Assembly (NCBI RefSeq): GCF_041435335.1
Contig: NZ_CP108430.1
Location: forward strand, 2,170,001 to 2,234,000
Source: Streptomyces sp. NBC_01283
Lineage (GTDB): Bacteria > Actinomycetota > Actinomycetes > Streptomycetales > Streptomycetaceae
Length of the DNA stretch: 64,000 nucleotides
Direction of reading: 5' to 3'
This document shows positions 45,231 through 62,299 of the stretch, one piece after another (positions within the stretch are counted from its first letter, which is position 1; each line of letters begins with the position of its first letter). The notes under the pieces are model-generated. The model was not told the origin of the DNA and did not search any database. It saw only the letters and a list, made by a program, of their open reading frames with translations. The translations under genes and the position numbers were made by a program.

Positions 45231-46136
45231 CTAACCGAGATGCGAGGACCAGTCCTGTTCAGCCGCAGGCTTCCCGTGCAGATCAGGCACCCGCTTGAGC
45301 CAGGCGGGCCGCCCCTTCTCAGTAGCCGCAGCACGCCGGGCATCGGCGGCGGCAAGCTCACCCCGGGACGGGAAATCCACCGGCAGCCAGGCCGCCGAGG
45401 CCCGCGCCCGGGCCAGCAAGAAGGCAACGTACGCCTCCCGCACCTCGTCAGGCGACGAGAACCCCGGCTCATCCGCCAGCCACGCGTCAGGCACCAGGGC
45501 GGCGATGTCACGGAGAACGGTCTCCGTGACGAGAGGCGCCAGCTCGGCATCAGCGGCGGCCGTATCGGGCCCGTACCCCCCGAGGGCGTGGTGGCGGAAG
45601 TCGTAGACCTTGTCCGGTGCCGACGCGCCCCAGCGGTGGTGGAAGACCAGTGCCGCGCCGTGGTCGATGAGCCACAGCTTCGGCTCGTGGATGCCGAACG
45701 TGGGCCAGATCATCAGGTTCGAACTGTGCACCGTGCGGTCGACGTTGGCCGTGAGGGCGTCGAGCCAGACCACCTTGCCCGCCTCCAGCGGGTCCACGTC
45801 CAGCGCCTCGGGGGTGAAGTCCACGGCGCCCGGCAGGAGGTCCATGCCGAGGTTGATTCCGGCGCTGGCGTCCAGCAGGTCCCGCACCTCCTGGTGCGGT
45901 TCGTCCGTCGCCACCGCCGGGTCGAAGTCGACCAGGACGAGCTCGGGGAAGCGCAGGCCGAGCCGACGGGCCAGTTCGCCGACGATGATCTCGGCGACCA
46001 GCGCCTTGCGGCCCTGCGCGGACCCGGTGAACTTCACCACGTAGGTGCCGGAATCGTCGGCCTCGACCACGCCGGGCACGGAGCCCCCGGTGTGCAAGGG
46101 GTTCACGTACCGGGTCGCGATGACTTCTCTGAGCAC
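45231..46136 (-). CDS. HipA-like kinase family protein
   Basis: This 301-residue protein has features of the HipA/PI3-4-kinase-like fold: VKFTGSAQGRKALVAEIIVGELARRLGL with an ATP-site Lys (about residue 35), WLDALTANVDRTVHSSNLM, the catalytic-loop Asp/Asn, and LWLIDHGAALVFHHRW with the metal-binding Asp. It belongs to the short HipA-like group found widely in Streptomyces, not to HipAB toxins; no HipB antitoxin gene is adjacent. It lies 25 bases downstream of the P450 gene on the same strand, so it may be read through from the biosynthetic cluster. Confidence 0.78.
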   Translation of the reverse strand: MLREVIATRYVNPLHTGGSVPGVVEADDSGTYVVKFTGSAQGRKALVAEIIVGELARRLGLRFPELVLVDFDPAVATDEPHQEVRDLLDASAGINLGMDLLPGAVDFTPEALDVDPLEAGKVVWLDALTANVDRTVHSSNLMIWPTFGIHEPKLWLIDHGAALVFHHRWGASAPDKVYDFRHHALGGYGPDTAAADAELAPLVTETVLRDIAALVPDAWLADEPGFSSPDEVREAYVAFLLARARASAAWLPVDFPSRGELAAADARRAAATEKGRPAWLKRVPDLHGKPAAEQDWSSHLG

Positions 46137-46161: not shown

Positions 46162-47661
46162 TCATGATCCCGAGGTGCCGGTGACCGGGCACTTCTGCGC
46201 CGCCGTAACCGGCGCCGTGGAGGTGGACGCGGGTGCGGGTGCGGGTGCGGGTGCGGCCACCGTGCGGCTGACCGCTGCCGCGCCCTCGCGTGCCTTCACG
46301 CGCACCATGACGTCCTGCAAGGGGCGCAGCGAGATCACCGGTGAGCCGTACTGCAGGGAGTGGCCCGGGATCATGCTCAGCTTGAACCGCTGGTTGATCA
46401 TCGTCACGATCGTCCGCAGTTCGAGCAGCGCCATGGTGTTGCCGATGCACTGCCGCGGGCCCGCGCCGAACGGGAAGTAGGCCATGCGCGGGCGCTCCTT
46501 CACCGCCTCCGGGGTGAAGCGGTACGGGTCGAAGGCCAGCGGGTTGTCCCAGTGGAGCGGGTTGTGGTGGGACACGAGGGGTGAGAGCAGGATCGACGAG
46601 CCCGCCTCGATGTCGTAGCCGCCCAGGCTGTCCGGGCCGACGGCCGCGCGGGGGAAGATCCAGATCGGCGGGTGCATCCGCAGGCTCTCGTCCACCACCA
46701 TCTTGGTGTACGTCAGCGCGTCGGTGTTCTGCGTGTCCGGCAGGCCGCCGCCCAGGACCTGGGCGATCTCCGCGTCCAACTCCTCCTGCACCGGGGGGTG
46801 GTTGGCGATCGAGAGCAGGGTCCAGCAGAGCGACACCGCGGTCGTCTCGTGTCCCGCCAGGTAGATGGTCAGGAGTTCGTCGCGCAGTTCCTGGTCGGTC
46901 CAGGGCTCACCCGTGACGGGGTCCTTGGCCTCTTCCATCAGGGATATCAGCGAGCCCTCGCCGGTGCGCGCGTAGCTCTCGCGGACATCGGCGACGATCT
47001 TGTCGAAGACCCGGTGGATGCGGGCGATCTTGTGCTTGCGGTCGGTCGGCAGCCAGGACGGCATCATCTCGGACGGCGTACCGCGCCGGAACATCACCTC
47101 GACCACGTCGTCGACGATGTGCTTGAGCACCTTGGACGAGGGCTTGATGTCGTAGGCGAACAGCGAGCGGCTGAGCGTGATCAGGGTGAGCTTGAGCATC
47201 TCCGTCATCAGGTCGACGGGCTCGTCGCGGGCGGCCTTGGCCTCCCAATCGTCGAGCATCTCGTTCGTCGCGGTGACGATGTTCGGGACGATGTCGAGGA
47301 TGGTGTTCTTCTGGAACGCGGGCTGGACCGCACGGCGGTGCCCGCGCCAGTACTCGCCGTCCGTGGTGAGCAGACCCTTGCCCATGACGACGCTGAACTG
47401 CTCGTACAGCGGGCCGCGTACGTAGTTGCTGTTGTTCTTCACCAGGACCTGCTGCACCGCTTCGGGGCCGGTGATCTGGTGGACCGTCATCGGTCCGAGC
47501 CGCATGCGTACGGTCTCGCCGTAGTCGCGCTGCAGGCCGAGGAGGAACTCGGCGGTGTTGCGCCGCCAGGAACCGAGGCTGCCGAGCAGCGGGACTCCCT
47601 TGGGGCCGGGAGCACGGGCGGCGCCGCTGGGTGTGGTGGCGGGGGCTGTGGTGGCGGTCAT
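46162..47661 (-). CDS. cytochrome P450
   Basis: This 499-residue P450 has the I-helix AGHETTAVSL (about residues 266-275), ExxR in DESLRMHPP, and the heme loop FGAGPRQCIGNTMALLEL. Overall it resembles bacterial fatty-acid- or terpene-hydroxylating P450s of the CYP110/CYP183-like type more than small actinomycete macrolide P450s. A Pro-Ala repeat (APAPAPAPAS) encoded by a GCGGGT repeat forms part of a C-terminal tail not needed for the fold. Its ATG overlaps the stop of the upstream SDR gene by four bases. It probably hydroxylates the polyketide chain. Confidence 0.92.
   Translation of the reverse strand: MTATTAPATTPSGAARAPGPKGVPLLGSLGSWRRNTAEFLLGLQRDYGETVRMRLGPMTVHQITGPEAVQQVLVKNNSNYVRGPLYEQFSVVMGKGLLTTDGEYWRGHRRAVQPAFQKNTILDIVPNIVTATNEMLDDWEAKAARDEPVDLMTEMLKLTLITLSRSLFAYDIKPSSKVLKHIVDDVVEVMFRRGTPSEMMPSWLPTDRKHKIARIHRVFDKIVADVRESYARTGEGSLISLMEEAKDPVTGEPWTDQELRDELLTIYLAGHETTAVSLCWTLLSIANHPPVQEELDAEIAQVLGGGLPDTQNTDALTYTKMVVDESLRMHPPIWIFPRAAVGPDSLGGYDIEAGSSILLSPLVSHHNPLHWDNPLAFDPYRFTPEAVKERPRMAYFPFGAGPRQCIGNTMALLELRTIVTMINQRFKLSMIPGHSLQYGSPVISLRPLQDVMVRVKAREGAAAVSRTVAAPAPAPAPASTSTAPVTAAQKCPVTGTSGS
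46229..46256 (+). repeat. hexamer repeat (GCGGGT) in the P450 3' end
   Basis: Four and two-thirds copies of GCGGGT encode an alternating Ala-Pro tail on the minus strand. Length variation between strains is likely. Confidence 0.85.
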
Positions 47662-48758: not shown

Positions 48759-49178
48759 TCAGCCCAGGGCGCCGAGCTGCTTGGCGAGTTCGAGGCCGTC
48801 CAGCGAGAACCAGCTCTCGACGATCTTTCCGTCCTTGAATTCGTCGATCACGATGCCGCTGACGGCGAATTCGCGGCCGATGGCCGGCACGCCCTCGTAG
48901 GGCTCACCGGTGTGGGTGCCGCGCGCGGTGAACCGGCTGACGACCTTCTCGCCCTCCAGGATCCAGTCGTCGACCGTCACGTGCAGGTCGGGGAAGGAAG
49001 CGCGCTGGAGGCGCACCCACTCCTTGAGGTGCTCGACGCCTTCCTTGCCGTTCGGGGCCGTGCCGTGGCTGATGTGGTCGTCACCGGCGCCCTCGTAGAT
49101 CACGTCGAGGTTGCCCTTGTTGAGGCACTCCTCGTAGTAGCGCTCCAGTACGGCCTTGTTCTCCTGCAGATTCGACAT
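48759..49178 (-). CDS. SnoaL-like polyketide cyclase/NTF2-fold protein
   Basis: This 139-residue protein has the SnoaL pattern: an N-terminal helix pair (ENKAVLERYYEECLNKGNLDVIYE), then HGTAPNGKEGVEHLKEWVRLQRASFPDLHVTVDDWILEGEKVVSRFTARGTHTGEP, and the C-terminal DGKIVESWFSLDGLELAKQLG. Members cyclise polyketides by aldol chemistry or act as hydrolases or isomerases. Within this cluster a role in ring closure or stereochemical editing is plausible. AGGAAAGG precedes the ATG. It is 73 bases after the KR-DH gene. Confidence 0.88.
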   Translation of the reverse strand: MSNLQENKAVLERYYEECLNKGNLDVIYEGAGDDHISHGTAPNGKEGVEHLKEWVRLQRASFPDLHVTVDDWILEGEKVVSRFTARGTHTGEPYEGVPAIGREFAVSGIVIDEFKDGKIVESWFSLDGLELAKQLGALG

Positions 49179-49251: not shown

Positions 49252-51666
49252 TCAGCCGTTTCCGACCGGCCCGCGCGGGCCCGAGACGCTCATGACGGGG
49301 GTCCCGGATTCCGCGTTCTTCACTTTCCACACCCCAAGGGCCGTGTCGCCCTCGACGAGGGAATTCCCGTGCTCCTCGGAATGGAGCGTGATGCGGCCGA
49401 AGACCAGCGGGTCCCTCGCGACCGAGACGCCTTCGCCCTGGCTGGCGCCGGCCCGGACCACGTTCTCCAGCGCGGAGACGGGCAGTACGGTGCGCGGCGC
49501 GTGGAGCGTCGCCCACAGGTCGTTGGGGACGCACGGCCGCACCACGGCGGTCAGGAGGCCGTCCGGCCCTTCGGACCAGTCGGCGGCGGGCACCACCGAG
49601 CCGCGCCAGCTCAGCAGCGGCGGGCCGGAGCGCCAGACGGTCGTCGGCTTCACGTCAGGCCGCGCCAGGACGGGAGAGCGGGTGCCTCCCGGCTCGTGGA
49701 CGACCCGCAGGCTCGCCTCGGGACCGTCCCCGGCGGCGTCCGAAGCCCGCCGGAAGCGCACGGTGACCACCCAGGTGTCCCCTTCGTGCGCACCGGTCAC
49801 CTCCCGCTCCCACACGGTCGCTCCCGCGTCGAGCCGCAGCAGGTCGAGCGGTACGACGACCTCCTCCAGGGAGCCCGCCCGCAGCGCCGGGAAGTCCTCG
49901 GGGACGATCCACTCCGCGCCGCGTACCGCGCTCTCCAGGAGGATGCTCACGGGGACGGCCGCCGTGCCGTCCACCTGGAAGTCGCCGAGGACCGGCGCCC
50001 GGTGACGGTCGAACGTCACCCGCGACACCATGCGCGCGTGCGGCTGATACGTCGTCACCTCCCCCAGGTGGAAGATCCGCGGGTAGGTGTCGGTGAAGCC
50101 GGGCAGGTCGGGCACGACGGGGTAGTCGGTGGCCTGGCCGGGGCTCATCGCCCTGCCCAGCGGCCCCACGAAGGTGACCTCCCCGTCGGATCCGGCCCGC
50201 AGCTCCGCCTGCCACTTGGCGAGGCCCTCGGTGATGTCGATGGCCGCCATGTAGCGCAGCGTCGCCGAGAAGTTGGAGATGAGGCCGATGCGGTCCCAGG
50301 TCGGCCAGGCCAGAGTCATCACGGGGAAGTCCGCGCGGCGGCTCGCCCACCGGCCGAGGCGGGCCAGGCCTTCGTTGGCCGCCGCGTATTCGAGCTGGCC
50401 GACCATGCCGCCGAGCCGCCCGGTGAGGGAGCCGACGCTGCAGAAGAACTTGAGCCGGTGGCCCTGCAGTTGGTCGAAGAGGTTGAGGAAACCCCCGATC
50501 TTCGTGCGGACGGTCCGCAGGATCTCCTCGTCGCTCTTCTTGGGCAGCCTGGCCGCGGTGTCCACGCCCGCGTTGTGCACGACTCCGGTCAGCGCGTCGC
50601 CCTCGCGCTCCACGAGGGCGCGCACCTGCTCCAGGTCGGTGAAGTCGCAGCGGGCGTAGTCGACGCGCAGCCCGCCTGCCCTGGCTTCGGTGATGTTCGT
50701 CGAGAGTTCCCACAGGCGGCGGGTGCGGGCGATGTCCCGCCGGATCTCCACCGGCGTCGCCCCCTGCCGCAGCCGGGCCCACAACTCCTTCTCGTACGCC
50801 TTGAGTTCGCTCTCCGCGGCGCCGAACCACGGTTCGTCGCCGGTGGGGAACTCCTCCCGGCCCGTCACCACGACCCGCAGGCCGTGGGTGGCGGCCAGCG
50901 AGCGGGCCAGCTCCCAGCCGATGCCCCGCCCGCCGCCCGAGATCAGCACGCAGTCGTCCGGGCCCAGCGGGACGGTGGGCCGCCCGGCGGGCCGGGCGAC
51001 GGGGGTGAGGGTCAGCCGCTGTCCGTCGCGGTGCCCGACCTCCAGCTCGCCGGGCCTGCCCAGTTCGGCGGCGACGATGCCCGGCAGGTCGGCGAGGGCG
51101 TCCAGGCCGGTGTCGACGACGCGTGCGTTGCAGTTCGGCAGTTCGCGGTGCAGCGTCTTCGCGAGCCCCGCCCAGATGCCGCCGAGCGGCTGCGTCAGGT
51201 CGTCATCGGGGTGGTGGCCCATGCCGCCGCCCAGGTAGGTCACGGCCAGGTAGTACAGGCGCCGTGCCGAGGTCTCGGCGGACCAGTCGTCGTAGTGCTC
51301 GCGCAGCGCGGCCACCGTCTGGAGGAGCGGCTCGCGCCAGGCCTCGCCCAGGTCGCCGGGGCCGGACGCGCCGCCGCCCACCGTGAGGTCGACGATCGCG
51401 TCCACGGCTCCCCCGGGAGCCGCCGGGTGGCGGCGCACCAGGGCGCCGTACCCGGTCAGTTCACGTTCCACGGCCGCGGCGGTCCCGTCGTCGCCGCCGA
51501 CGATCAGGACCCGCATCCCCGCGAGGCGCGCGGGGTCGGCGGGGGGCGCCGGCAGAGCGGTGAGGTGCCACTCCATCCGGCTCACCGCCTGCACGGAGGC
51601 CGGGGCGCCTCCCGCGCTGTCGGCGGCCACCGGCGAGGGCGGCCGTTCGCGTACGGATGTCGTCAT
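49252..51666 (-). CDS. PKS accessory protein: ketoreductase plus DH-like domain
   Basis: This 804-residue protein has a KR structural subdomain (about 30-200), then a catalytic KR (about 215-480) with SGGGRGIG, Lys in RTKIGGFLNLF, Ser in CSVGSLTG and Tyr in QLEYAAANEG. A double-hotdog DH-like domain follows (about 480-795). In the DH the usual DHxVxG motif reads GDFQVDGTAAVP, with Phe for the catalytic His, and the second-half motif reads SALENVVRAG instead of LLDAxxQ, so it is probably inactive. I chose ATG 51666, which has GAGGGAGGAG 8 bases upstream; GTG 51693, overlapping the PKS stop, is the alternative. No ACP is present. Confidence 0.9.
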   Translation of the reverse strand: MTTSVRERPPSPVAADSAGGAPASVQAVSRMEWHLTALPAPPADPARLAGMRVLIVGGDDGTAAAVERELTGYGALVRRHPAAPGGAVDAIVDLTVGGGASGPGDLGEAWREPLLQTVAALREHYDDWSAETSARRLYYLAVTYLGGGMGHHPDDDLTQPLGGIWAGLAKTLHRELPNCNARVVDTGLDALADLPGIVAAELGRPGELEVGHRDGQRLTLTPVARPAGRPTVPLGPDDCVLISGGGRGIGWELARSLAATHGLRVVVTGREEFPTGDEPWFGAAESELKAYEKELWARLRQGATPVEIRRDIARTRRLWELSTNITEARAGGLRVDYARCDFTDLEQVRALVEREGDALTGVVHNAGVDTAARLPKKSDEEILRTVRTKIGGFLNLFDQLQGHRLKFFCSVGSLTGRLGGMVGQLEYAAANEGLARLGRWASRRADFPVMTLAWPTWDRIGLISNFSATLRYMAAIDITEGLAKWQAELRAGSDGEVTFVGPLGRAMSPGQATDYPVVPDLPGFTDTYPRIFHLGEVTTYQPHARMVSRVTFDRHRAPVLGDFQVDGTAAVPVSILLESAVRGAEWIVPEDFPALRAGSLEEVVVPLDLLRLDAGATVWEREVTGAHEGDTWVVTVRFRRASDAAGDGPEASLRVVHEPGGTRSPVLARPDVKPTTVWRSGPPLLSWRGSVVPAADWSEGPDGLLTAVVRPCVPNDLWATLHAPRTVLPVSALENVVRAGASQGEGVSVARDPLVFGRITLHSEEHGNSLVEGDTALGVWKVKNAESGTPVMSVSGPRGPVGNG

Positions 51667-51685
51667 GCTGCGGTCTCCTCCCTCG

Positions 51686-54600
51686 TCAGTCACGGTCGGC
51701 CGAGACGGCTTCGCCCGTGCGGGCGTCGACGTAGCCGATCAGCGTCGCCTGCATGTCCTTCATCTGCAGGAGCATCCGGCCGTCGGGCCGGGTCGCGACG
51801 AACCGGTTGTCGATCAGGTCCGCCGTCAGGTCGAAGCCGGGCGGCGTGGCGTACAGCTCGATGTCGTCGCCGGACCGGGACAGGGACAGGTCGTTCGTGT
51901 CCTCGTACAGGTCGATGCGGCGGATCGACAGCGGCGCGGCGACGGGGATCAGATGGCCGTCGACGAGGTCGAGGACCCCGACCCGGGCCAGGCCGTCGAG
52001 CAGGATGCTCGGGACCGTGAACCGGGGCCACGTCGGGTCGCCGTCGGGCAGCGACAGGGCGTAGCGGCCCCGCTTGCCGTTGGGGTGGATACGGGTGTCG
52101 GTGGTCGACACGAAGGGACCGGTGAGCTGCACCGGTGAGCCCGGCTGGTGGTACGGGTCCGGTACCGGGGTGTCGTCCGCGGTGTCCCACGCCTCCCACC
52201 GCGGGGCGGTGGAGTAGGAGTCGGCGAGCAGGACGCGGGCCGTGAAGTGCACCCGGTCCTTGATGAGCACGACACCTGTCGGGGAGACCACGTCCTCGGT
52301 GATCCGCACCTCGACGGCGGTCGTGGAGCCGTCGGTCGACGCGATCCGCGCGTACAGCCGCTTGGGGGCCGTCGGCAGGTCGCGGTAGACCCGCAGGAAG
52401 TGCTCGAACCGCAGGTCCTCGAAGGCGACGACGTGCTGGTCGGGGACCAGGTACCGGGCGGCCTCCGCGGCCAGTTCGGTGACGAACGTACCGGGCAGGG
52501 TCGGCTCGCCGCGCACCGTGTGGTGCTCCAGATAGCCGTCGGTGTCCAGGTCGAAGCGGCACTCGAACTCGGCGGACGTGGCCGTCGACTCGACGAGGCG
52601 GCGCAGGAAGAAGCCTGGCTGCGTGGGCTCCGCCTCACCGGCGGCCGGGTCCTCCGTGAGGTAACCGGGGTAGAACTCCTCGACGGTGGCGCGTTCGGCC
52701 TCTCCCAGGTGCACGAGGGAGGGCCGCCTGACGGGCGCGTGCAGTTCCTGTACGAAGTGGTGCACGCCCTCGGGCACGGCCATGCTGCTGTAGGAGCCGG
52801 CCCGTTCGTAGTACGCCTTGGTCAGTTCGTTGGCCCCCATGCCGACACCGGCCCACAGCGTCCACCCGATGGTGAACTCGTCGAGTTCCGAGGTGGCCGC
52901 CGCATAGGTCGCCGCGGTGCCCAGGAAGTCGTTGGCCGATGCGTAGTCGGACTCGCCGAGCTGCCCGAAGTACCCGAGCAGCGAACCGAAGTTGCACCAC
53001 ATGCGGGGCGGTGCGTCGCGCAGCGCGTACTTGAGGTTCAGGTACGACTCGACCTTCAGGTCACGGATCGAGGTGAACTCCCCGAAGTCCTTGTCCTTGA
53101 TGAGTGCCGAGCGCTGCAGACCCGCGGCGTTGACCAGCAGGTCGATGCGCCCGTGCTCCTGGAGCACCGCGCCGATGGCCTTCTCCACCTGGGCGCCGTC
53201 GCGCATGTCGCACTGCACGTAGGTGACCCGGCCCGCGCCGCTGTGTTCCGTCATCGTGTCGAGGTTGTGGCGGGCGTCCCGGGCGTTGAGCATCCGGTCG
53301 AAGGACTTGTTGAGGTCCGCGACCGACGGGCCCTTGGCCGCGCCCTTGCCCTTGCCCCTCGCCTTGCCCTTGTTCTTGGACTTGGCCTTGGCGAGTTCCG
53401 TCTTGATGTACGCCGCCCGGCCCGCCGCGAACTCCTCGTCGCTGCCCTCGAAGACCGACGGAGGGTAGCTGTCCAGGTCGTTGCTGCCGAAGACGTGGAT
53501 ACGGGGGCCGAACTCGGCGGCGACCTCCTTGAGCACCTCGGCGGTGATGCCACGGGCGCCGCCCGCGACGACGACCACGGAGTCCCGGTCGAGCGCCGCC
53601 GGTGCGGAGGCGTCGAGGGCGATCGGCTCGTCGTGCAGCCGGGGGGTGCGGCGCACCCCGTCGGCGTCGACGACGACGGGGAAGGTGCGGTGCGCCCGGC
53701 TCTCCTCCTCCACGCGCCGCACTCCGTCGGCCACTTCGGTGGCCGAGGTGAGGAGCGCGAAGCTGGTGCTGTCGGTGAGCTCGCGTCCCGCGCTCTTGAG
53801 CAGGCCGGTGAAGAGCCCGGAGAAGGGGTGCGGGGTGCCGCCGGGCACCGCGTCGAGGAACAGCATGACGAGGGTGGACTCGGCGGTGGAGAGACCGGCG
53901 TGGGTGTTCTGGAGTGCCAGGTACGTCGCGTCGTGCAGGGCGAGTACCGGCGCCGAGCCCTCGGTGAGCGGCTGCCCGGCGGGCGCGGAGCTCCCCAGGC
54001 CCGCGAGGACCCGCAGGTGCGTGACCGGTTGCCCGGCGTCCGCCAGGGCCGCGCGGACCGTGTCGGGGGTGACCTCGGGCAGGTGGTGCCAGCCGGGCCT
54101 CGGGGCCTTCAGCGGGGTGGTGGACAGCACGGTCAGCGCGCTGTCGGGGCCCACCGCGTCGGCCAGCGGGCCGGGTATGTCGGTGACGACGAGTGCGCCG
54201 TCCGGCAGGAACGCGATGGGCTCCCGCACCTGCCGGGCCGGGATCGCCTCGAACACCGGAACCTGGCGGCGCACCCGCAGGGGAACGCCCTCCCCGGTGT
54301 GCGTGTCCGACACGAAGCTCGGCGGCAGGGTGCCGGTGACGGAGGACCCGTGCTCCCCGCCCTGTGCGGGGGCGGGTTCGACGGGACCGGGGACGGTCAG
54401 CCGCAGCCGGGCGCCCGGTGCGCCGCCGGTCTGGTCGCAGGAGACCTCCACCGTGCCGGCGGGCCCGTGCAGGGCCTTCAGCACGGCGAGGCCACCGGCC
54501 GCGCCCAGATAGCGGGCGTGCGCGGGCTCCGTGCACCGCACGGACTCCCGCTCGGGTGCGGCGCCGGGCTGCTCGGCGGCGCTGCCGAGCGGCTCGTCGA

Positions 54601-57600
54601 CGTACGCCAGGATCGGCAGGCCCTCGGCCACGGCCCGCTCCTCGGTGGCGAGGGCGAACAGGAAGGCGCCCTCGGCGAGTTCCTCCTCCTGCTCGGGGAG
54701 CAGGCCGCCGATCAGGGAGCGGTACGCGGGGAGGCTGTTGCCGTTGATGCCGCCGGCCAGTGCGAAGTCCAGCTCGCCGGTGCGCAGGTAGCGTCCGGCC
54801 GAGGTGATCGACGACAGCGCGGAGGCGAAGCCCGAGTCCATGGTCATGTTCGGGCCGTTGAGGTCGAAGTAGTTCGCGACCCGGGCGGAGATGATGTTGG
54901 GCATCTGGCCGGGGAACGCGTCCTCGTTGGACTCCGGGATCATCGCCTTGACCTGCTCGCGCAGCCGGTCGAGTACCTGCCCGGCGGCCGGTGAACCGGC
55001 CAGCGGCGAGTCGGCGACGGCCTGCCCGATGTCGTCGAGGTAGCAGCGGTTCGCGTACAGCATGGCGGCCCGGGTCGGGCCCATGTGCCCGACGAACACA
55101 CCGGTCTTGGCGGCCTGCTTGCCCCAGAAGTCGGGCATCTGGTCGCGGAGGCGGTGGGCGCACTGCAGGATCATCAGCTGGCAGCGGTCCAGGGCCCTGA
55201 TGGTCTTGGGGGGCAGCCGCACCTCGTTGAACGGCGGCGACGGATAGTCGGCGCCGAAGGTGTCCAGCGGCGGCTTGCCGCCGGCCAGCCAGTCCGAGAC
55301 CTCGTCACGGTCGGCGAGGCCGGGCAGGTGCGAGGACCAGCCGACGATGACGACGCGGCTGTCGGGGTCGGGCTTCTTGGTGGCGGGGATCGTCTCGGCG
55401 GGGGCCTCCGGTGCCTGTGCCTGTGCCTGCACGCGAGGTGTCTCAAGGCGCGGCTGGTTCTCGGCGACGATCAGATGCGCGTTGGTGCCGCCGAAACCGA
55501 AGCCGGACACGGCGGCGAGCCGGGGCCTGTCGCCGTGCTCGGACCACTGCGCCGCCTCGGCCGGGATGTCCAGCTGGGTGTCGGCGAGACGGAAGTCCTC
55601 GCGGGGGTTGGTGAAGCGGAACTGGCCCGGCACGGTCTGCTTCTCGAGGCCCTTGAGGTTCTCGATGAGCGAGACGACGCCCGCCGCCCAACCGGTGTGT
55701 CCGATCAGGGACTTGTTGGAGGTGACCGCGGTCGCCCGCGAGGTGCCGAAGTGCTCCCGCAGGGTGGAGAACTCGGCGAGGTCACCGGCGGGGGTGCCGG
55801 TCGCGTGCGCGTTGATCCAGTCGACGTCGTCGCCGTTGACGTCGCCGTTCTCCAGCGCGCGCTGCACGGCGAGGCTCTGCCCGGCCGAGTTCGGCGCGTA
55901 GATCGCCTTGCCCTTGCCGTCCGACGAGGAGCCGAACGCCCGCAGCACGCCGAGGACCTGGTCGCCGTCCGCCTGGGCCTTGCTCAGCCGCTTCAGTACG
56001 ACCAGGGCGGCGCCGTCGGCGAAGATCACGCCGTCGGCGGCCTCGTCCAGGGCGTGCACCTTGCCGCTCTTGGACAGTCCCTGGAGCTTGGAGAAGAGGA
56101 CGGTGCCGCGCGGCGCAAGGGCGAAGGCGCCGCCGCACACCGCGATGTCCTGCTTGCCCATCAGCAGGCCCTTGGCCGCGATGTCGATGGCGTACAGCGA
56201 CGAGGAGCACGCGGTGTCGACCATGTGCAGCTCGGTGGACGAGGGCAGGATGCCCTCCATGGCGAGCTCACCGACGCGGTGCGGCAGGAACCGGGAGGGG
56301 TTCTCGCCGCGGCGCCGGTAGCGGTCGGTGAGGGAGGTGTCGATGCCCCCGCGCAGCGCCTGCCGTTCGGCGTCGGTCATGGCCAGGTCGTCGATGATGT
56401 CGTGCGTCATCCTGGTGACGCTGTCGAGGACCCCGGCCTCCTCCAGGTGCTGGCTGCCGTCCGGGGTGTAGCCGACGACGAAGGAGCAGTTGTCGGTGTC
56501 GCTGCGGCGGACCCCGTCGAGCGCCTGGACCAGGCTGTGGCGGAGCCACTGGGTGGTGAACTCCTGGTCGTCGGGGCCTCCCTCCATGCCGTCGAGGGAG
56601 CCTTCGGCGGGCTCAAACCCGGTGATGAACACACAGTGGTCGGCGTACGCCTTGTCCTCGGCGGCGGTGTCCGGCGAGTGGAAGCGCTCGTGTTCCCAGC
56701 GGTCGGCGGGGACCTTGACGAACAGTTCGTCCCCCGTCATGCGGAGCTTCCAGAACTCCTCGGGGCTGTTCGCCCCCGCGACGGCGAGACCCATACCGAC
56801 GACGGCGATCGAATCGTCCCCGAACTCCGCCTCGGTGAGGGGCACTTCGGACCCCACGACCTGCACGGGCGCATCGTCCTGGGCCACGTCGGCCTGGGGC
56901 GCCTCGGCCACGGGCGACGAGGCCACGGGCGACGAGGTCACCGGCGCCGAGGCCACCGGCGCCACGACCGGCTCCGCAGCCGGCGCCGCCTCCGCCGGAG
57001 GCGACAGCAGCGCCGCGCCCAGCGTGAGGCCGCCGTCGGCGAGGACGACCTGGCCGGTGATCCAGCGGGCGTCGTCGGAGGCGAGGAAGGCCACCACGGT
57101 GGCGAACTCCTCCGGTGTGCCGAGCCGCCCGAAGGGGGTGGCCCGGGCGATGACGTCCTGCATCCGGTCCGCGTCGGGGAACTTGTCCGCCACCTCGCTG
57201 GTCAGCATGGCGGCGGACGCCGTGTTGACCCGGATGCCCAGCGGCGCGAGCTCCACGGCCAGGTAGCGCGACGCGGCCTCGGCCGCGGCCTTCGCCGGGG
57301 CGCAGGCCAGGTAGTTGGCCATCACCATCTGGGAGCCGCCGAGGGCGGAGACGGTGACGATCGAGCCGCCGCCGCCCCTGGCCATCAGCGGTGCGGCGCC
57401 GCGCGCGACGCGCAGCCCGCCCTTGTAGTTGGTCTCGATGGCCTTGTCGAGGTGTGCGTCGGTGACCTCGTCCACCGGCAGCAGCGCGCCGTCGGCGGCG
57501 CTGTTGACGAGGATGTCGAGCCGGCCGTGCAGCCGGTCGATCTCCGCGAACATCCGGTCGACCTGCTCCTGCCTGGCCACCGATGCGCGGATCAGGTCGA

Positions 57601-57772
57601 CGCGGTGGCCGTCGGCGGTCAGCTCGTCGCGGGTCGCCTTGGCCTGGTCGTGCGAATGGAAGTAGTTGAGGACGATCGAGGCGCCGCGCGAGGCCAGTTC
57701 ACGCGCGATGGCCTTGCCCACACCCTTCGATCCGCCGGTGACCAGAGCCACCTTGCCTGTCAGGTCTTTCAT
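51686..57772 (-). CDS. PUFA-synthase-like polyketide synthase: ER(FabL-like)-KS-CLF-KR-DH
   Basis: This 2028-residue core synthase has several domains. Residues 1-252 are an SDR with TGGSKGVG and a Y-x6-K pair (Tyr154, Lys161), the spacing of FabI/FabL enoyl reductases. A Pro/Ala/Val linker with a 15-bp repeat follows. The KS (about 318-775) has Cys522 in DTACSSSL, His656 in HATGT and His692. The second KS-like domain (about 805-1090) has Phe982 where Cys is expected, like a chain-length factor. The KR (about 1410-1750) has GGARGIT, Ser in NFGSLLG and Tyr in DYASAN. The DH (about 1790-2010) has LEHHTVRGEPTLPG and ILLDGLARVG. There is no ACP or AT inside; these come from the next gene. Confidence 0.92.
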   Translation of the reverse strand: MKDLTGKVALVTGGSKGVGKAIARELASRGASIVLNYFHSHDQAKATRDELTADGHRVDLIRASVARQEQVDRMFAEIDRLHGRLDILVNSAADGALLPVDEVTDAHLDKAIETNYKGGLRVARGAAPLMARGGGGSIVTVSALGGSQMVMANYLACAPAKAAAEAASRYLAVELAPLGIRVNTASAAMLTSEVADKFPDADRMQDVIARATPFGRLGTPEEFATVVAFLASDDARWITGQVVLADGGLTLGAALLSPPAEAAPAAEPVVAPVASAPVTSSPVASSPVAEAPQADVAQDDAPVQVVGSEVPLTEAEFGDDSIAVVGMGLAVAGANSPEEFWKLRMTGDELFVKVPADRWEHERFHSPDTAAEDKAYADHCVFITGFEPAEGSLDGMEGGPDDQEFTTQWLRHSLVQALDGVRRSDTDNCSFVVGYTPDGSQHLEEAGVLDSVTRMTHDIIDDLAMTDAERQALRGGIDTSLTDRYRRRGENPSRFLPHRVGELAMEGILPSSTELHMVDTACSSSLYAIDIAAKGLLMGKQDIAVCGGAFALAPRGTVLFSKLQGLSKSGKVHALDEAADGVIFADGAALVVLKRLSKAQADGDQVLGVLRAFGSSSDGKGKAIYAPNSAGQSLAVQRALENGDVNGDDVDWINAHATGTPAGDLAEFSTLREHFGTSRATAVTSNKSLIGHTGWAAGVVSLIENLKGLEKQTVPGQFRFTNPREDFRLADTQLDIPAEAAQWSEHGDRPRLAAVSGFGFGGTNAHLIVAENQPRLETPRVQAQAQAPEAPAETIPATKKPDPDSRVVIVGWSSHLPGLADRDEVSDWLAGGKPPLDTFGADYPSPPFNEVRLPPKTIRALDRCQLMILQCAHRLRDQMPDFWGKQAAKTGVFVGHMGPTRAAMLYANRCYLDDIGQAVADSPLAGSPAAGQVLDRLREQVKAMIPESNEDAFPGQMPNIISARVANYFDLNGPNMTMDSGFASALSSITSAGRYLRTGELDFALAGGINGNSLPAYRSLIGGLLPEQEEELAEGAFLFALATEERAVAEGLPILAYVDEPLGSAAEQPGAAPERESVRCTEPAHARYLGAAGGLAVLKALHGPAGTVEVSCDQTGGAPGARLRLTVPGPVEPAPAQGGEHGSSVTGTLPPSFVSDTHTGEGVPLRVRRQVPVFEAIPARQVREPIAFLPDGALVVTDIPGPLADAVGPDSALTVLSTTPLKAPRPGWHHLPEVTPDTVRAALADAGQPVTHLRVLAGLGSSAPAGQPLTEGSAPVLALHDATYLALQNTHAGLSTAESTLVMLFLDAVPGGTPHPFSGLFTGLLKSAGRELTDSTSFALLTSATEVADGVRRVEEESRAHRTFPVVVDADGVRRTPRLHDEPIALDASAPAALDRDSVVVVAGGARGITAEVLKEVAAEFGPRIHVFGSNDLDSYPPSVFEGSDEEFAAGRAAYIKTELAKAKSKNKGKARGKGKGAAKGPSVADLNKSFDRMLNARDARHNLDTMTEHSGAGRVTYVQCDMRDGAQVEKAIGAVLQEHGRIDLLVNAAGLQRSALIKDKDFGEFTSIRDLKVESYLNLKYALRDAPPRMWCNFGSLLGYFGQLGESDYASANDFLGTAATYAAATSELDEFTIGWTLWAGVGMGANELTKAYYERAGSYSSMAVPEGVHHFVQELHAPVRRPSLVHLGEAERATVEEFYPGYLTEDPAAGEAEPTQPGFFLRRLVESTATSAEFECRFDLDTDGYLEHHTVRGEPTLPGTFVTELAAEAARYLVPDQHVVAFEDLRFEHFLRVYRDLPTAPKRLYARIASTDGSTTAVEVRITEDVVSPTGVVLIKDRVHFTARVLLADSYSTAPRWEAWDTADDTPVPDPYHQPGSPVQLTGPFVSTTDTRIHPNGKRGRYALSLPDGDPTWPRFTVPSILLDGLARVGVLDLVDGHLIPVAAPLSIRRIDLYEDTNDLSLSRSGDDIELYATPPGFDLTADLIDNRFVATRPDGRMLLQMKDMQATLIGYVDARTGEAVSADRD
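56906..56965 (-). repeat. 15-bp coding repeat in the ER-KS linker of the PKS
   Basis: Four 15-base units at 56906, 56921, 56936 and 56951 encode a Ser/Ala-Pro-Val-Ala type linker on the minus strand. Confidence 0.75.
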
Positions 57773-57826: not shown

Positions 57827-59317
57827 TCAGCCCGCCGCGACGGGCTCCCGGCCGGACAGCTCCGAGACCACGAAGTCGACGATCTTGTCCATGGTGTTGT
57901 AGTTCTCCAGGCGGAACCCGGCCTCCCGGGTGGGCAGGCCGTACCGCTTGGAGGCGCGGGCGAGCAGCTCGACCTGCTTCACCGAGTCGACGCCCAGCTC
58001 GGCCTCCAGCTGCACGCCGTCCTCGAAGACCTCCTCGGGGTACTCCAGGGCCTCCGCGTACAGGGTCCGCAGCTCGGCGTGGATCTCGGCGCGGTCCGGG
58101 GCGCCCGCGGCCGGAGCGGACGCGGCGGGAGCGGAGGCGGCAGGTGCGGCGGCGGGCGCCGGTGCCTGCACGGCCTTCTTCGGGGTGAAGGCGCCGATGT
58201 CGTCGGCGATGCGGCGGAGCACCTCGTCGCCGTGCTCGGCCCAGTACGCCTCGAAGACGTCGGCGGGCACAGTGGGGGCGAGCAGCTCGGCGAGGCCCGG
58301 GGCCTCGACCTCACCGGCGAGGCCCGCGTCGCGCAGGATCCGCAGGGTGGCGTCCAGCGCGAGGCCGCCGTCGCCGTCGATCGCGAGGGACGGCAGGGCG
58401 CGGATGTCCGAGCCCTTGGTCAGCCGGGCGACGAGCTTGGTCAGCGCGGCACGCCCGCCCGCCTCCACGAACGTGGTGACACCGGCGGCCTGAAGGTGGC
58501 GCACCGCGGCGGCGAACCGCACGGGGGTGACGAAGTGCTCGGCGAGGCGGTCGGCCAGGGCGTCGTCGGGCTCGTAGTAGCGCTGGAGGATCGGCGAGTA
58601 CACCAGGCGCTGCAGCGGGTGCTGGTCCAGCTTGCCGACGTACGCGGCGAATTCGGGGACGGCGGGGGCGAGCGCCGGGGTGTGGAAGGGGAAGGGGGTG
58701 TCGATCTCGATGGCGCCGATGCCGAGCTGTCCGGCGATCGCGATGACCCGGTCGAGGACCTCGCCGGGACCGCTCACCACGGTCTGCTCGTCGTGGTTCT
58801 CGGTGGCGACGGCGAGCAGCGGGTCGTCGAGCAGGTCAAGGAGGCGGCGGGCCCGGTCGGCGCCGGCCGACAGCGCCACCATGCGGCCCTCGATGCCCTT
58901 CTGCCGCTGGATGACCGCCACGCGCTGGGCGACGATCCGCACGCCGTCCTCGACGGAGAACGCTCCGGCGGCGACCAGTGCGGTGATCTCGCCGAGGCTG
59001 TGCCCGGCGAGGACGTCCGGGCGCACGCCCTGGGCGTTCAGGATCTCGTACGAGGCCAGACCGGCGGCGTAGATGGCCACCTGGGAGGCCCAGGCGTCGT
59101 CGTCGAGGAGTCCGCGCAGTTCGGCGCTGTGGTCCCCGAGGACCAGGTCGGTTATTCGACGCGAGAACAGGTTCATGGTCTCCGCATCAATGCGCTCGAA
59201 GACGCGCTTGACCTGCGGGTACTTCTGCGCGGCGCGGCGCAGGGCTTCGCCGTCGAAGCCGCCTTGGCCAGGGAAGAGGAAGGTGGTGCGCAGGTCCGCC
59301 GAGGTGTGGACGGTCAT
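57827..59317 (-). CDS. acyltransferase-acyl carrier protein (AT-ACP)
   Basis: This 496-residue protein supplies the AT and ACP that the large synthase lacks. The AT (about 1-330) has FLFPGQGG, nucleophile Ser107 in GHSLGE and His212 in FPFHTP, of the malonyl-using type. A disordered Ala/Pro linker leads to one ACP (about 415-490) with phosphopantetheine Ser445 in LEAELGVDSVKQVELL, the LGxDSxKxVE form typical of PUFA-synthase ACPs. A strong GGAGG site precedes the ATG. Having only one ACP is unusual, because PUFA synthases carry several in tandem. No phosphopantetheinyl transferase gene is visible in the window. Confidence 0.93.
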   Translation of the reverse strand: MTVHTSADLRTTFLFPGQGGFDGEALRRAAQKYPQVKRVFERIDAETMNLFSRRITDLVLGDHSAELRGLLDDDAWASQVAIYAAGLASYEILNAQGVRPDVLAGHSLGEITALVAAGAFSVEDGVRIVAQRVAVIQRQKGIEGRMVALSAGADRARRLLDLLDDPLLAVATENHDEQTVVSGPGEVLDRVIAIAGQLGIGAIEIDTPFPFHTPALAPAVPEFAAYVGKLDQHPLQRLVYSPILQRYYEPDDALADRLAEHFVTPVRFAAAVRHLQAAGVTTFVEAGGRAALTKLVARLTKGSDIRALPSLAIDGDGGLALDATLRILRDAGLAGEVEAPGLAELLAPTVPADVFEAYWAEHGDEVLRRIADDIGAFTPKKAVQAPAPAAAPAASAPAASAPAAGAPDRAEIHAELRTLYAEALEYPEEVFEDGVQLEAELGVDSVKQVELLARASKRYGLPTREAGFRLENYNTMDKIVDFVVSELSGREPVAAG

Positions 59318-59421: not shown

Positions 59422-60774
59422 TCAGGCGGCCAGGTACTGGCCCATGGGCCCGAGGTTCTTCGCCACGAGCCGGTCGGCGGTGCGGGTCGCGCCGGGGATG
59501 TGCCGGGGCGTCCCACGGGCCAGCCAGCGCACCATGCGCAGCTTCCAGCCCGGCGCGGCGCCGGGCTCCAGGTGGTCGAGCAGGGCGTGGATGCTGTCCG
59601 GTGAGTAGAACTCCGCCGGGTGGACCATCGTGGCGAACATGCCGACCATCGCGCGGCCGTGCGTGGGGCTGCGGTGCATGGCCTGGATGAACGCCAGTTC
59701 CTCCCGCGAGTGGTTCGCGATCGTCGCGTGGTCGCGGGTGTAGCGGTAGTGGCCGGTGACCAGGGCGTCGCGGTCACGGGCGTAACCGGCGAGGGCGGAC
59801 GACAGCGATTCGCTGCCGCCCAGGCCCGATCCGATGGCGGCGGCGAGGAGTTCGGCGCCGCGCAGTCCGTCGGTGATCCCGGCGGCGGTGATCGGGTCAC
59901 GGGTGTAACCGGCGTCTCCGGCGAGGGCCCAGCCGGGGCCGTGCGAGAGGCGCAGGAAGTTGGGCACGGACCCGGTCATCCAGCGGTCGACGCGCTTGGT
60001 CTCGCGCAGCAGCTGGGCCCGCTCCGGGTCCACCTCCTCGAACGCGGAGATGACCGTACGGTCGCGGTCCTCGTCGCTGGTGGCCTTGAAGTCGGCCACC
60101 GGCAGGGCCACTCCCACGATGGTGAGCCCGTCGTGGGTCGGCCAGGTGAACGCGTGCTTGCCGTTGTGGCGGTAGGTGCGGACCCGCCCGTCGTGCGGCA
60201 GGCCCTCCCAGTAGGACCAGTGGCTCTTGTTGAGGACCGGGTGCGCGTCGTACTTCGGTGCGTCCAGGAGCCGGGCCAGGGTCGAGTTGGAGCCGTCGGC
60301 GCCGACGACGACGCGGGCGTGTTCGACGACGGGGGTACGGTCCGCCGTCTCGCCGCGTATACCGGTGACCGTGCCGTCGTCGTCGGTGATCAGCTCACGG
60401 ACGGAGACGCCCGCGCGCAGTTCCGCCCCGGACTTGACCGCGGCGTCCAGCAGGATCTGGTCGAGCTTGCTGCGCTCCGGCGAGTACGCCTCGTCCACCC
60501 CGTCCTCGGCGGGCAGCCTGGCCATCAGCTCCACCGGGCCGCTGCGCAGCCCGTACTCGGTGATGGGCGGGCAGCCGGTGGCCTTCAACTCGTCGAGCAG
60601 GCCCCACCGTTTGAGGCGCAGGATGCCCGGCGGGTGGACCAGGTTGGTCGCCGCCGCCTTGCCGCCGGGGAACACGGCCCGGTCGAGGAGGAGCACCTTG
60701 TGGCCGGCCCGGGAGAGCAGCATGGCCGTGGAGGCGCCGCTGATCCGTGCGCCGACAATGATTGCGTCGTACAT
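59422..60774 (-). CDS. FAD-dependent oxidoreductase (geranylgeranyl reductase/monooxygenase-like)
   Basis: This 450-residue flavoprotein has the N-terminal dinucleotide motif IIVGARISGASTAMLLSRAG, the second FAD contact ARVVVGADGSNSTLARLL and the DG motif WALAGDAGYTRDPITAAGITDGLRGAE. It belongs to the group A flavoprotein superfamily that contains geranylgeranyl reductases, halogenases and aromatic hydroxylases; the lack of a clear halogenase WxWxIP motif argues against a halogenase. ATG 60774 follows a good GCAGGAG site, and the open frame beyond is shadow. It likely oxidises or reduces the polyketide chain. Confidence 0.88.
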   Translation of the reverse strand: MYDAIIVGARISGASTAMLLSRAGHKVLLLDRAVFPGGKAAATNLVHPPGILRLKRWGLLDELKATGCPPITEYGLRSGPVELMARLPAEDGVDEAYSPERSKLDQILLDAAVKSGAELRAGVSVRELITDDDGTVTGIRGETADRTPVVEHARVVVGADGSNSTLARLLDAPKYDAHPVLNKSHWSYWEGLPHDGRVRTYRHNGKHAFTWPTHDGLTIVGVALPVADFKATSDEDRDRTVISAFEEVDPERAQLLRETKRVDRWMTGSVPNFLRLSHGPGWALAGDAGYTRDPITAAGITDGLRGAELLAAAIGSGLGGSESLSSALAGYARDRDALVTGHYRYTRDHATIANHSREELAFIQAMHRSPTHGRAMVGMFATMVHPAEFYSPDSIHALLDHLEPGAAPGWKLRMVRWLARGTPRHIPGATRTADRLVAKNLGPMGQYLAA

Positions 60775-60835
60775 CTCGACTCCTGCCACTGGCTGGTCGT
60801 CTGCGGGCGATTGCGTACGGGGGTGTCCGGGGCCG

Positions 60836-62299
60836 TCAGTGCCGCGAGGGCTCAAGACGGTCCGCGGGCTCGGCGCCGCTGGTGTCCGGGCGCTCCTCTT
60901 CCTGCCACGCGGCGCCGTTCTCCTTGGAGCGGCGCGGTGCGACGAGGATGGCGACGCAGCCGAGGGCCGCGATTCCGGCGCCGATCCAGGTGGCAGGCAC
61001 CAGGCCGTCCACGAAGTCCTGCGGCGAGGCGTATCCGCCCTGCGCGGTGAACACCGACGTCAGCACCGCAACGCCGAGCACACCGCCGAGCTCACGGAAG
61101 GTGTTGTTGGCGCCGGAGGCGATGCCCTGGTCGCGCGGGGCGACGATGTTCATGGCCATCTCGGCGACGGGCGCGAAGAACAGTCCGAGCCCGATGCCGC
61201 CGAGCACGAGGCCGGGGACCTGGTCGGCGTACGCGGTGTGCACCTCGGTCACCAGGGCGAGCCAGCCGAGGCCGACGGCCTCGAACAGCAGACCCGCGGC
61301 GACCACGAGACGGTTGCCGAACCGGGCGGAGAGCAGCGCGGTGAGCGGGGCGACGAGGACGGGCATCGCGGTCCACGGCAGCATCCGCACACCCGCTTCG
61401 AGCGGCGAGAAGCCCTGGATGTTCTGCATGAACTGGGTCAACAGGAACACCAGGCCGAACATGGCGGCGAACATCAGCAGGCTGGCCGAGTTGACCGCGC
61501 TGAACGACCGGTTGCGGAACAGCCGCATCGGCAGCATCGGGTGGCGGGCGCGCAGCTCCCAGAGGACGAAGGCCGCGAGGATCACCGCTCCGGCGATCAG
61601 GTAGATCAGCACATGGCTGTCGGCCCAGCCGTACTCGGTGGTCCGGACGAGGGCGAACACCACGCCGAACATGCCGAGGCACACCAGGATCGTGCCCACC
61701 GGGTCGAGCGTGCTCTCCGGGTGCTTGCTCTCGGCGAGCTTCCACAGGCTGAGGGCCAGTACCAGCACGCCGATCGGCACGTTGACCCAGAAGATCCACT
61801 CCCAGGAGATCTTCTCGACGACGGCGCCGCCGATGAGCGGTCCGAGCGCGACGGCGAGTCCGCTCAGCGCACCCCAGACGCCCAGGGCGAGTGCGCGTCG
61901 GCGGGCCGGCACGGCGACCGTCAGGAGGGTCAGGGTCAGCGGCATGACGATGGCGGCGCCGAAGCCCTGCACGGCGCGGGCGATGATCAGCTGCTGGGAG
62001 GTGTCGGAGAGCGCGCACGCCGCCGATGCCGCGGTGAAGACGACGAGGCCCACCACGAACATCCGGCGGCGGCCGAAGCGGTCACCGGCCGCCGCACCGG
62101 CCATCAGGAAGACCGCGAAGGACAGGGTGTAGGCGTTCACCGTCCATTCGAGGTCCTGGAGGCTCGTGTCGAGGGACTCCTGGATGGCGGGCAGGGCGGT
62201 GATGACGACCAGGTTGTCGAGCGCCGCCATGAAGACGGCGAGGCCGGTGACGATCAGGGTCCACACGGAATGACCGCGTGAACTGGACCGACTGGGCAT
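60836..62299 (-). CDS. EmrB/QacA-family MFS exporter
   Basis: This 487-residue exporter with 14 hydrophobic segments has DHA2 motifs: the segment-1 motif VFMAALDNLVVITALPAIQESL, motif A GDRFGRRRMFVVG and motif C GLAVALGPLIGGAVVEKISWEWIFWVNVPIG. It should export the cluster product or give self-resistance. GGAAGG precedes the ATG. It is transcribed between the flavoprotein and the acyltransferase genes. Confidence 0.93.
   Translation of the reverse strand: MPSRSSSRGHSVWTLIVTGLAVFMAALDNLVVITALPAIQESLDTSLQDLEWTVNAYTLSFAVFLMAGAAAGDRFGRRRMFVVGLVVFTAASAACALSDTSQQLIIARAVQGFGAAIVMPLTLTLLTVAVPARRRALALGVWGALSGLAVALGPLIGGAVVEKISWEWIFWVNVPIGVLVLALSLWKLAESKHPESTLDPVGTILVCLGMFGVVFALVRTTEYGWADSHVLIYLIAGAVILAAFVLWELRARHPMLPMRLFRNRSFSAVNSASLLMFAAMFGLVFLLTQFMQNIQGFSPLEAGVRMLPWTAMPVLVAPLTALLSARFGNRLVVAAGLLFEAVGLGWLALVTEVHTAYADQVPGLVLGGIGLGLFFAPVAEMAMNIVAPRDQGIASGANNTFRELGGVLGVAVLTSVFTAQGGYASPQDFVDGLVPATWIGAGIAALGCVAILVAPRRSKENGAAWQEEERPDTSGAEPADRLEPSRH

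What the first reader, a model, noticed from the sequence alone, without database searches (positions are those of the whole stretch)
51686..57772. Rearranged PUFA-synthase-like PKS with an N-terminal FabL-type enoyl reductase
The 2028-residue synthase begins with an SDR whose catalytic pair has FabI/FabL spacing (Tyr154-x6-Lys161) and whose surrounding sequence (NYxxxxxxKAAxEAxxRYLAVELxPxxIxVN, FPxxxxxxxxxxxxTPxGR) follows Bacillus FabL, not an ordinary ketoreductase. Such an ER fused in front of KS-CLF-KR-DH is not the usual PfaA-PfaD or hglE layout, where the ER is an FMN enzyme (PfaD) or absent. If active, the synthase could fully reduce chosen cycles without a PfaD.
Basis: partly seen in the sequence, partly recalled or inferred. 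Interest (0 to 1): 0.85.

Follow-up and report, generated by a model that had tools for sequence, protein, structure and literature searches.

The report
Iterative synthase with fused FabL-like reductase
A Streptomyces-type gene cluster encodes a fatty-acid-like polyketide synthase that carries, at its front end, a reductase related to the fatty-acid enzyme FabL; the same arrangement recurs in several bacterial phyla, and I found no description of it in the papers I could search.

Summary
ORF 51686-57772 (minus strand, 2028 aa) reads SDR-KS-CLF-KR-DH. Residues 1-252 are FabL-related: best PDB sequence hit B. subtilis FabL (174 bits, next 137), Tyr154-x6-Lys161, and a tree position outside FabG, ketoreductases and other SDRs, though rooting with FabI is unsettled. 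It is not FabL proper (235 bits; model cut-off 328).

It is no one-off. Of 213 proteins examined (the window's and 212 best-listed relatives), 202 carry a full domain and all 202 keep Tyr and Lys; they span Actinomycetota, Burkholderiales, Alphaproteobacteria, Bacillota and Chloroflexota. The domain is the best-conserved part of the synthase, with the lowest dN/dS in 5 of 5 comparisons. No PfaD relative was found in the window or 15 related loci; the genome's only strong PfaD is 6.8 Mb away in another cluster. In 105 of 114 mostly actinobacterial members the SDR Ser is Ala, arguing against ketoreduction.

Best explanation: an iterative lipid/polyketide synthase that took a FabL-type enoyl reductase in place of PfaD. 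Activity, cycles reduced and product are not shown. Ten literature searches listed no description.

The parts
57017..57772 (-). N-terminal FabL-like SDR domain, residues 1-252 (proposed enoyl reductase); Tyr154 codon 57311-57313, Lys161 codon 57290-57292; Asn115 kept, SDR Ser position is Ala143
56819..57016 (-). Pro/Ala-rich variable linker, residues 253-318
   Evidence: poorly conserved: 27-51% mean identity in the classes measured, where the ER is 74-94%
55418..56818 (-). Ketosynthase (KS), residues 319-785; C522, H656, K687, H692
54473..55357 (-). Chain-length-factor-like KS (CLF), residues 806-1100; Gly981 at the Cys position in 121 of 121 rows
52703..53632 (-). Ketoreductase (KR), residues 1381-1690; K1573, S1597, Y1610, N1614
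51728..52675 (-). Dehydratase (DH), residues 1700-2015; HxxxGxxxxP at H1751, D1926
57827..59317 (-). AT-ACP protein (496 aa), one ACP (DSVKQVE motif)
49252..51693 (-). KR partner protein (813 aa): intact KR plus a C-terminal part that Pfam leaves unassigned and that resembles the synthase's DH only weakly (Phe where the catalytic His would be); overlaps the synthase gene by 8 bases
48759..49178 (-). SnoaL-like protein
   Evidence: a SnoaL domain is fused to a relative of the synthase in P0321
47658..48581 (-). SDR oxidoreductase (tailoring, inferred)
46162..47661 (-). Cytochrome P450; a P450 is fused to the KR partner in Paraburkholderia and to the synthase in Kitasatospora
59422..60855 (-). 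FAD-dependent oxidoreductase
60836..62299 (-). MFS efflux transporter
62348..63637 (-). WS/DGAT-type acyltransferase (called in 3 of 14 related loci)

Best explanation
The protein is the core of an iterative, PUFA-synthase-like type I polyketide/lipid synthase whose enoyl reductase is an SDR of FabL ancestry joined to the front of the KS by a variable linker. Proposed cycle: the AT-ACP protein loads malonyl units; KS-CLF condenses and sets chain length; the KR (or the KR of the partner protein) reduces the ketone; the DH dehydrates; in the cycles where the substrate fits, the N-terminal domain reduces the 2-enoyl-ACP with NADPH through Tyr154/Lys161. This takes the place of PfaD. The P450, SnoaL-like protein, SDR and flavoprotein then tailor the chain. 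Shown here: domain order, FabL relationship, conservation of the Tyr/Lys pair and of the other active sites, no PfaD relative found near the cluster, recurrence in several phyla, fusion partners. Inferred: enoyl-reductase activity, NADPH use, which cycles are reduced, chain length, product.
For: FabL is the best PDB sequence hit (174 versus 137 bits; with a profile 369 versus 230, but that profile's rows include FabL-like proteins), the best NCBIfam SDR model (235 versus 205 for the next) and the top Foldseek hit (41% identity). Tyr154/Lys161 are kept in 114 of 114 and 88 of 88 full domains. FabG/GDH/HdhA/AntM/own-genome SDRs form a separate side of the tree (100/99; median distance from the window domain to FabL 2.11, to other SDRs 3.33). 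The ER is the best conserved domain in each of four divergence classes and has the lowest dN/dS in 5 of 5 comparisons (5 of the 14 loci were used). The SDR Ser is Ala in 105 of the 114 domains; E. coli FabI has Tyr in that column, so Ser is not needed for enoyl reduction, while it is for classical keto reduction (recalled). No PfaD relative in the window, L036 or 15 related loci. Two ER-less synthases and two stand-alone ERs share source and contig length (P0309/P0135 9302; P0317/P0132 231962), pointing to a split form.
Against: The FabL model score is below its cut-off. The fold does not separate FabL from FabG. With FabI in the tree the position between FabL and other SDRs is unsettled. Eleven of 213 rows lack a full ER, and P0321 (AT-ACP-KS-CLF-KR-DH-SnoaL) is a long synthase without one. 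The genome has a PfaD elsewhere that could act in trans. No biochemical evidence.
Confidence: 0.74

Rival explanations
1. The N-terminal domain is an SDR that acts on a carbonyl or alcohol (an extra ketoreductase or dehydrogenase, possibly on an unusual intermediate) and only shares ancestry with FabL.
For: FabL and FabG folds are nearly the same; the FabL-model score is sub-threshold; FabL's own active site is described as a FabI/FabG hybrid (passage of PMC9260719); most members outside the set keep Ser or Thr at 143 (87 of 88).
Against: The Yx6K spacing in 202 of 202 full domains is the enoyl-reductase spacing; Ala replaces the carbonyl-binding Ser in 105 of 114 domains; the synthase and its KR partner already hold two intact KRs.
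Confidence: 0.13
2. It is an enoyl reductase that works on a tailoring or released intermediate rather than during chain elongation.
For: The cluster has several redox tailoring genes (P450, SDR, flavoprotein), and fully reduced cycles are not shown.
Against: It is fused to the KS in 202 of 213 rows, and the Nocardia locus L025 keeps the ER-bearing synthase next to AT-ACP where no KR-partner, SnoaL, FAD or SDR homolog was found.
Confidence: 0.07
3. The domain is catalytically dead and structural, or PfaD from the other cluster does the enoyl reduction in trans.
For: Ala143 departs from FabL; a strong PfaD (641 bits) exists in the genome.
Against: Tyr, Lys, the Gly13/Gly19 positions and Asn are kept and the domain is under the strongest purifying selection of the protein; the PfaD lies 6.77 Mb away beside its own KS-AT-ACP genes.
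Confidence: 0.06

Closest known systems
PfaA-PfaD polyunsaturated fatty acid synthases and the secondary-lipid synthase Types A-T of Shulse and Allen 2011 (PMC3098273)
   Same: Iterative KS-CLF, AT, KR and DH with an ACP of the DSxKxVE kind (ACP motif recalled); multi-gene layout
   Different: FabL-like SDR fused to KS instead of PfaD; one ACP rather than 4-6 in tandem; KR and DH on the KS-CLF protein; AT-ACP separate. I saw passages and section 7 of that paper: Type L (S. coelicolor) has a pfaD; the domains of Type M and Type Q are not given in the text I read, so identity with one of them is not excluded; figures and supplements were not available
Bacillus subtilis FabL (enoyl-ACP reductase III, PDB 3OIC/3OID)
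   Same: 41% identity over the domain in Foldseek's alignment, Yx6K without the FabI Met, Asn kept
   Different: Stand-alone in B. subtilis; here fused to a megasynthase, below the FabL model cut-off, Ser to Ala at 143 and one extra residue before the Tyr
Modular PKS and animal-type FAS with MDR enoyl-reductase domains (recalled)
   Same: Covalently attached ER in a KS-containing chain
   Different: Those ERs are medium-chain dehydrogenases in the DH-KR region; here a short-chain dehydrogenase at the N-terminus
Heterocyst glycolipid synthases (Hgl, Type F)
   Same: PUFA-like KS-CLF lipid synthases
   Different: The passages seen describe no SDR-type ER; HglC is KS-CLF-AT there

Membership tests
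FabL (enoyl-ACP reductase III) | Score over NCBIfam NF005975 cut-off (328 bits) | tested here: not met
   235 bits; a named FabL scores 411, an ordinary SDR of this window 164
FabL (enoyl-ACP reductase III) | Tyr-x6-Lys pair without the FabI Met | tested here: met
   Y154-LACAPA-K161; 202 of 202 full domains keep Tyr and Lys
FabL (enoyl-ACP reductase III) | Asn-Xn-Ser-Xn-Tyr-x6-Lys signature (PMC9260719, passage) | tested here: not met
   Asn115 yes, Ser is Ala143 in the window and in 105 of 114 domains; Ser in 76 and Thr in 11 of 88 domains
FabL (enoyl-ACP reductase III) | NADPH-dependent enoyl-ACP reduction | not testable with these tools
   needs an enzyme assay
FabI / divergent SDR enoyl reductases | Internal Met in Yx2(x)Mx3K (PMC9260719, passage) | tested here: not met
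   YLACAPAK has no Met
FabG / ketoreductase SDRs | Yx3K | tested here: not met
   residue 157 is Cys, not Tyr
FabG / ketoreductase SDRs | Placement within the FabG/KR clade | tested here: not met
   11 other SDRs form one side of the tree, 100/99; 13 do so, where the rooting with FabI is unsettled
PUFA synthase (PfaA-D) | PfaD-type enoyl reductase in the cluster | tested here: not met
   no tblastn match at E<=1e-3 to the genome's own PfaD in window, L036, L018-L031, L038
PUFA synthase (PfaA-D) | TIGR02813 PfaA cut-off (1010 bits) | tested here: not met
   273 bits
PUFA synthase (PfaA-D) | KS paired with a CLF lacking the active Cys | tested here: met
   Gly981 in 121 of 121 rows
PUFA synthase (PfaA-D) | Tandem ACPs | tested here: not met
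   one PP-binding stretch in the AT-ACP protein, none in the synthase
PUFA synthase (PfaA-D) | KS phylogeny within PfaA/PfaC | not tested
   no KS tree against named Pfa sequences was built

The most novel reading that the evidence does not exclude
This is an undescribed class of iterative type I synthase in which a FabL-type short-chain enoyl reductase has been captured as a built-in domain, an evolutionary origin of programmed enoyl reduction separate from PfaD (FMN) and from MDR-type ER domains. The class is spread over four phyla (Actinomycetota, Pseudomonadota, Bacillota, Chloroflexota), and its actinobacterial branch carries an Asn-Ala-Tyr-x6-Lys site that neither FabL (Ser) nor FabI (Tyr) has.
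Probability: 0.6. Interest if true: 0.75.

Novelty: new variant of a known kind. Interest (0 to 1): 0.62.

Why it matters
Enoyl reduction decides whether an iterative synthase makes a saturated, partly unsaturated or polyunsaturated chain. In PUFA synthases that step is tied to PfaD, and in most other PKS/FAS to MDR domains (recalled). A covalently attached FabL-type reductase gives a small, separable module with a solved structural relative, so cycle-by-cycle control of saturation could be tested by changing one domain. The family is large, conserved across phyla and, as far as these searches show, has no known product.

Tried and rejected
Ordinary ketoreductase: rejected on Yx6K, Ala143 and tree position. 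One-off fusion or assembly artefact: rejected, because 202 of 213 proteins have the full domain. S. coelicolor 'EPA' cluster SCO0124-0129: considered as the same system and set aside, since PMC3098273 files S. coelicolor under Type L with a pfaD and a KS-CLF-DH2-AT protein (section 7). Fold comparison as proof of ER identity: not usable, FabL and FabG tie. Tree with E. coli FabI as root: FabI end branch 3.15, position unreliable, reported but not relied on. DH identity of the KR partner's C-terminus: Pfam finds nothing, BLASTP with the PfaD cluster's KR-DH protein aligns the KR part only, the AlphaFold2 model has mean pLDDT 60.7 and was not interpreted, and hhalign with the synthase DH gives one weak match (E 0.0036, probability 9%). 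Prevalence across Streptomyces genomes: never obtained. MDR-type enoyl reductases were not searched for separately; none appears in the Pfam or NCBIfam tables of the nine operon proteins. Literature: ten searches listed no paper that I recognised as describing a FabL- or SDR-type ER fused to a PKS; not all ten asked that question (17 and 70 asked about locus names and a producer), four listings were capped (20 of 28, 20 of 34, 8 of 2,210, 12 of 302), and most subscription journals are not in that library. Papers: PMC3098273 passages and section 7; PMC13291983, PMC9260719 and PMC5932044 passages; the rest listings only.
Full report
WHAT IS THERE. The ORF at 51686-57772 is on the minus strand and encodes 2028 aa from an ATG. 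Its codon-position GC (0.71/0.49/0.95) is that of a real high-GC gene. Pfam finds, in order, an SDR (adh_short_C2, residues 16-250), ketoacyl synthase N and C domains, KR and a PKS dehydratase. Aligning it with the 120 relatives listed shows KS C522/H656/K687/H692 in 120 of 121 rows (one gap), Gly at 981 where a KS would have Cys in 121 of 121 (hence CLF), KR K1573/S1597/Y1610/N1614 in 121 of 121, and DH H1751 and D1926 in 121 of 121, with Arg rather than Gln at 1930.

THE N-TERMINAL DOMAIN. Against the PDB, FabL of B. subtilis (3oic) is first with 174 bits; the next chain has 137. With a profile of 45 rows the gap is 369 to 230, but those rows include FabL-like proteins, so this is not independent. 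Among NCBIfam models FabL is the best SDR model at 235 bits, ahead of a glucose dehydrogenase model (205) and FabG models (185 or less), but the FabL cut-off is 328. As calibration, a named FabL (P0209) scores 411 and an ordinary SDR from this window 164. In the whole genome this domain scores 229 on the FabL model and the second of 90 matches 164. Of the proteins below 50% identity, most that carry a function name are called FabL or enoyl-ACP reductase III (about 44-48% identity); many have no name.

ACTIVE SITE. Tyr154, Lys161 and Asn115 are kept in 114 of 114 full domains among the 121 rows. Among 92 further rows (91 new ones and the Paraburkholderia protein), 88 have a full domain, with Tyr and Lys in 88 and Asn in 87. 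The position of the classical SDR Ser is Ala in 105, Ser in 7 and Thr in 2 of the 114; in the 88 it is Ser in 76, Thr in 11 and Ala in 1. FabL has Ser and E. coli FabI has Tyr at this column (alignment). That Ser-to-Ala changes cripple carbonyl-reducing SDRs is recalled, not tested. On this reading the Ala-bearing branch would be poorly suited to ketoreduction and still able to reduce enoyl thioesters; the Ser-bearing majority of the second set does not give that argument.

CONSERVATION. In each of four divergence classes the ER is the most conserved domain: for relatives 55-65% identical to the window's protein from KS to DH, ER 74%, KS 66%, CLF 58%, KR 60%, DH 56%. In pairwise DNA comparisons with 5 of the 14 loci the ER has the lowest dN/dS each time, 0.17-0.33; in one of them, L029, part of the other protein looks frame-disturbed between CLF and KR, which does not touch the ER.

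DISTRIBUTION. The 120 proteins listed (the best of 1,811 hits) are mainly Streptomyces, with Actinosynnema, Nonomuraea, Streptosporangium, Nocardia, Actinomadura, Umezawaea and Saccharopolyspora among the named. A search with the Paraburkholderia relative (best 120 of 2,067) adds Burkholderia, Paraburkholderia, Methylocapsa, Labrys, Tumebacillus, Paenibacillus, Symbiobacteriaceae, Chloroflexi and Kitasatospora. Of 213 proteins in all, 202 have a full ER. The 11 without are P0033, P0040, P0051, P0069, P0076, P0116 (partial ER), P0121, P0302, P0309, P0317 and P0321. P0051 and P0076 begin inside the KS or later, and P0069 is marked partial. P0309 shares its source and contig length (9302) with stand-alone ER P0135, and P0317 shares 231962 with P0132, which suggests an unfused ER gene beside the synthase; the contigs themselves were not seen. 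P0321 is AT-ACP-KS-CLF-KR-DH-SnoaL with no ER.

CLUSTER. Fourteen loci (L018-L031) of the 18 returned carry the synthase; the other four are weak hits and were not used. AT-ACP is found in 14 of 14, the KR partner in 12, SnoaL in 12, the FAD enzyme in 13 and the SDR in 11; L024 and L029 are cut by contig ends. The Nocardia locus L025 shows AT-ACP and the synthase but none of the other four partners tested. On a Paraburkholderia ginsengisoli plasmid the same core sits with a P450 fused to the KR partner, an FMO, an ABC/LolA-like export set and a PPTase, near IS elements. In Kitasatospora (P0334) the P450 is fused to the synthase C-terminus, and in P0073 AT is fused to the front. These fusions tie P450, SnoaL and AT-ACP to the synthase. 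The KR partner keeps its KR Lys, Ser, Tyr and Asn in 13 of 13 rows; in its weakly DH-like C-terminus Phe stands where the catalytic His would be in 13 of 13. Right of the window lie an acyl-CoA carboxyltransferase and LuxR and IclR regulators.

NO PFAD NEARBY, ONE FAR AWAY. The genome's single strong PfaD (641 bits) is at C1:8992646-8993965, 6.77 Mb from the synthase, next to KS-AT-ACP and KR-DH genes of its own. A tblastn search with that PfaD finds no relative in the window, in the 18 kb to the right, in L018-L031 or in the Paraburkholderia locus.

MECHANISM AND LIMITS. I take the domain as an enoyl reductase acting during chain extension. The evidence is ancestry, active-site spacing, selection and the lack of another recognised ER in the cluster. 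What it reduces, how often, the chain length, the release step and the product are unknown. None of the nine operon proteins matched a thioesterase family, and the WS/DGAT acyltransferase, a possible release enzyme, was called in only 3 of 14 loci.

NOVELTY. Ten searches of the open-access library listed no description of an SDR- or FabL-type reductase fused to a PKS (limits under Tried and rejected). In the parts I read, the 2011 classification of secondary lipid synthases (PMC3098273, passages and section 7) names pfaD as the ER gene, and does not give the domains of every type. I rate this a new variant of a known kind: a PUFA-like iterative synthase with a non-homologous enoyl reductase.

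Noticed in passing
G000:C1:8984001-9002000 (L037, L041): A second PUFA-like cluster in the same genome with PfaD (641 bits), KS-AT-ACP, KR-DH and a gene of the NAD_binding_4 (thioester-reductase-like) family: a PfaD-type system in the same genome as the FabL-type one.
   Followed up: partly
G000:C1 ends, e.g. 136578-137375 and 9287663-9288460: Mirror-image pairs of matches, out to about 154 kb, whose coordinates sum to nearly the contig length point to terminal inverted repeats that carry type I PKS genes in two copies; not every pair near the ends is identical.
   Followed up: no
L038 (Paraburkholderia ginsengisoli plasmid NZ_CP066077.1): The homologous cluster lies on a plasmid among IS110 and IS6 transposases, with LolA-like and ABC genes and a PPTase, suggesting horizontal transfer and export of a lipid.
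   Followed up: partly
L040 (Streptomyces sp. YIM 121038 plasmid): A shortened relative: SDR lacking its N-terminal part, then KS-CLF whose KS part reads as if frame-disturbed.
   Followed up: no
window 49252-51693: C-terminal part of the KR partner is unassigned by Pfam and only weakly DH-like, with Phe at the His position in all 13 rows compared; its role is unexplained.
   Followed up: partly
window 45231-46136: HipA-like kinase gene (PF20613) next to the cluster's P450.
   Followed up: no
loci such as L019-L022 and L027, downstream of the P450: Neighbouring genes whose N-terminal sequences look like squalene/phytoene synthases and a FAD amine-oxidase-like enzyme, as in hopanoid clusters (recalled; no domain search run; sequences).
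   Followed up: no
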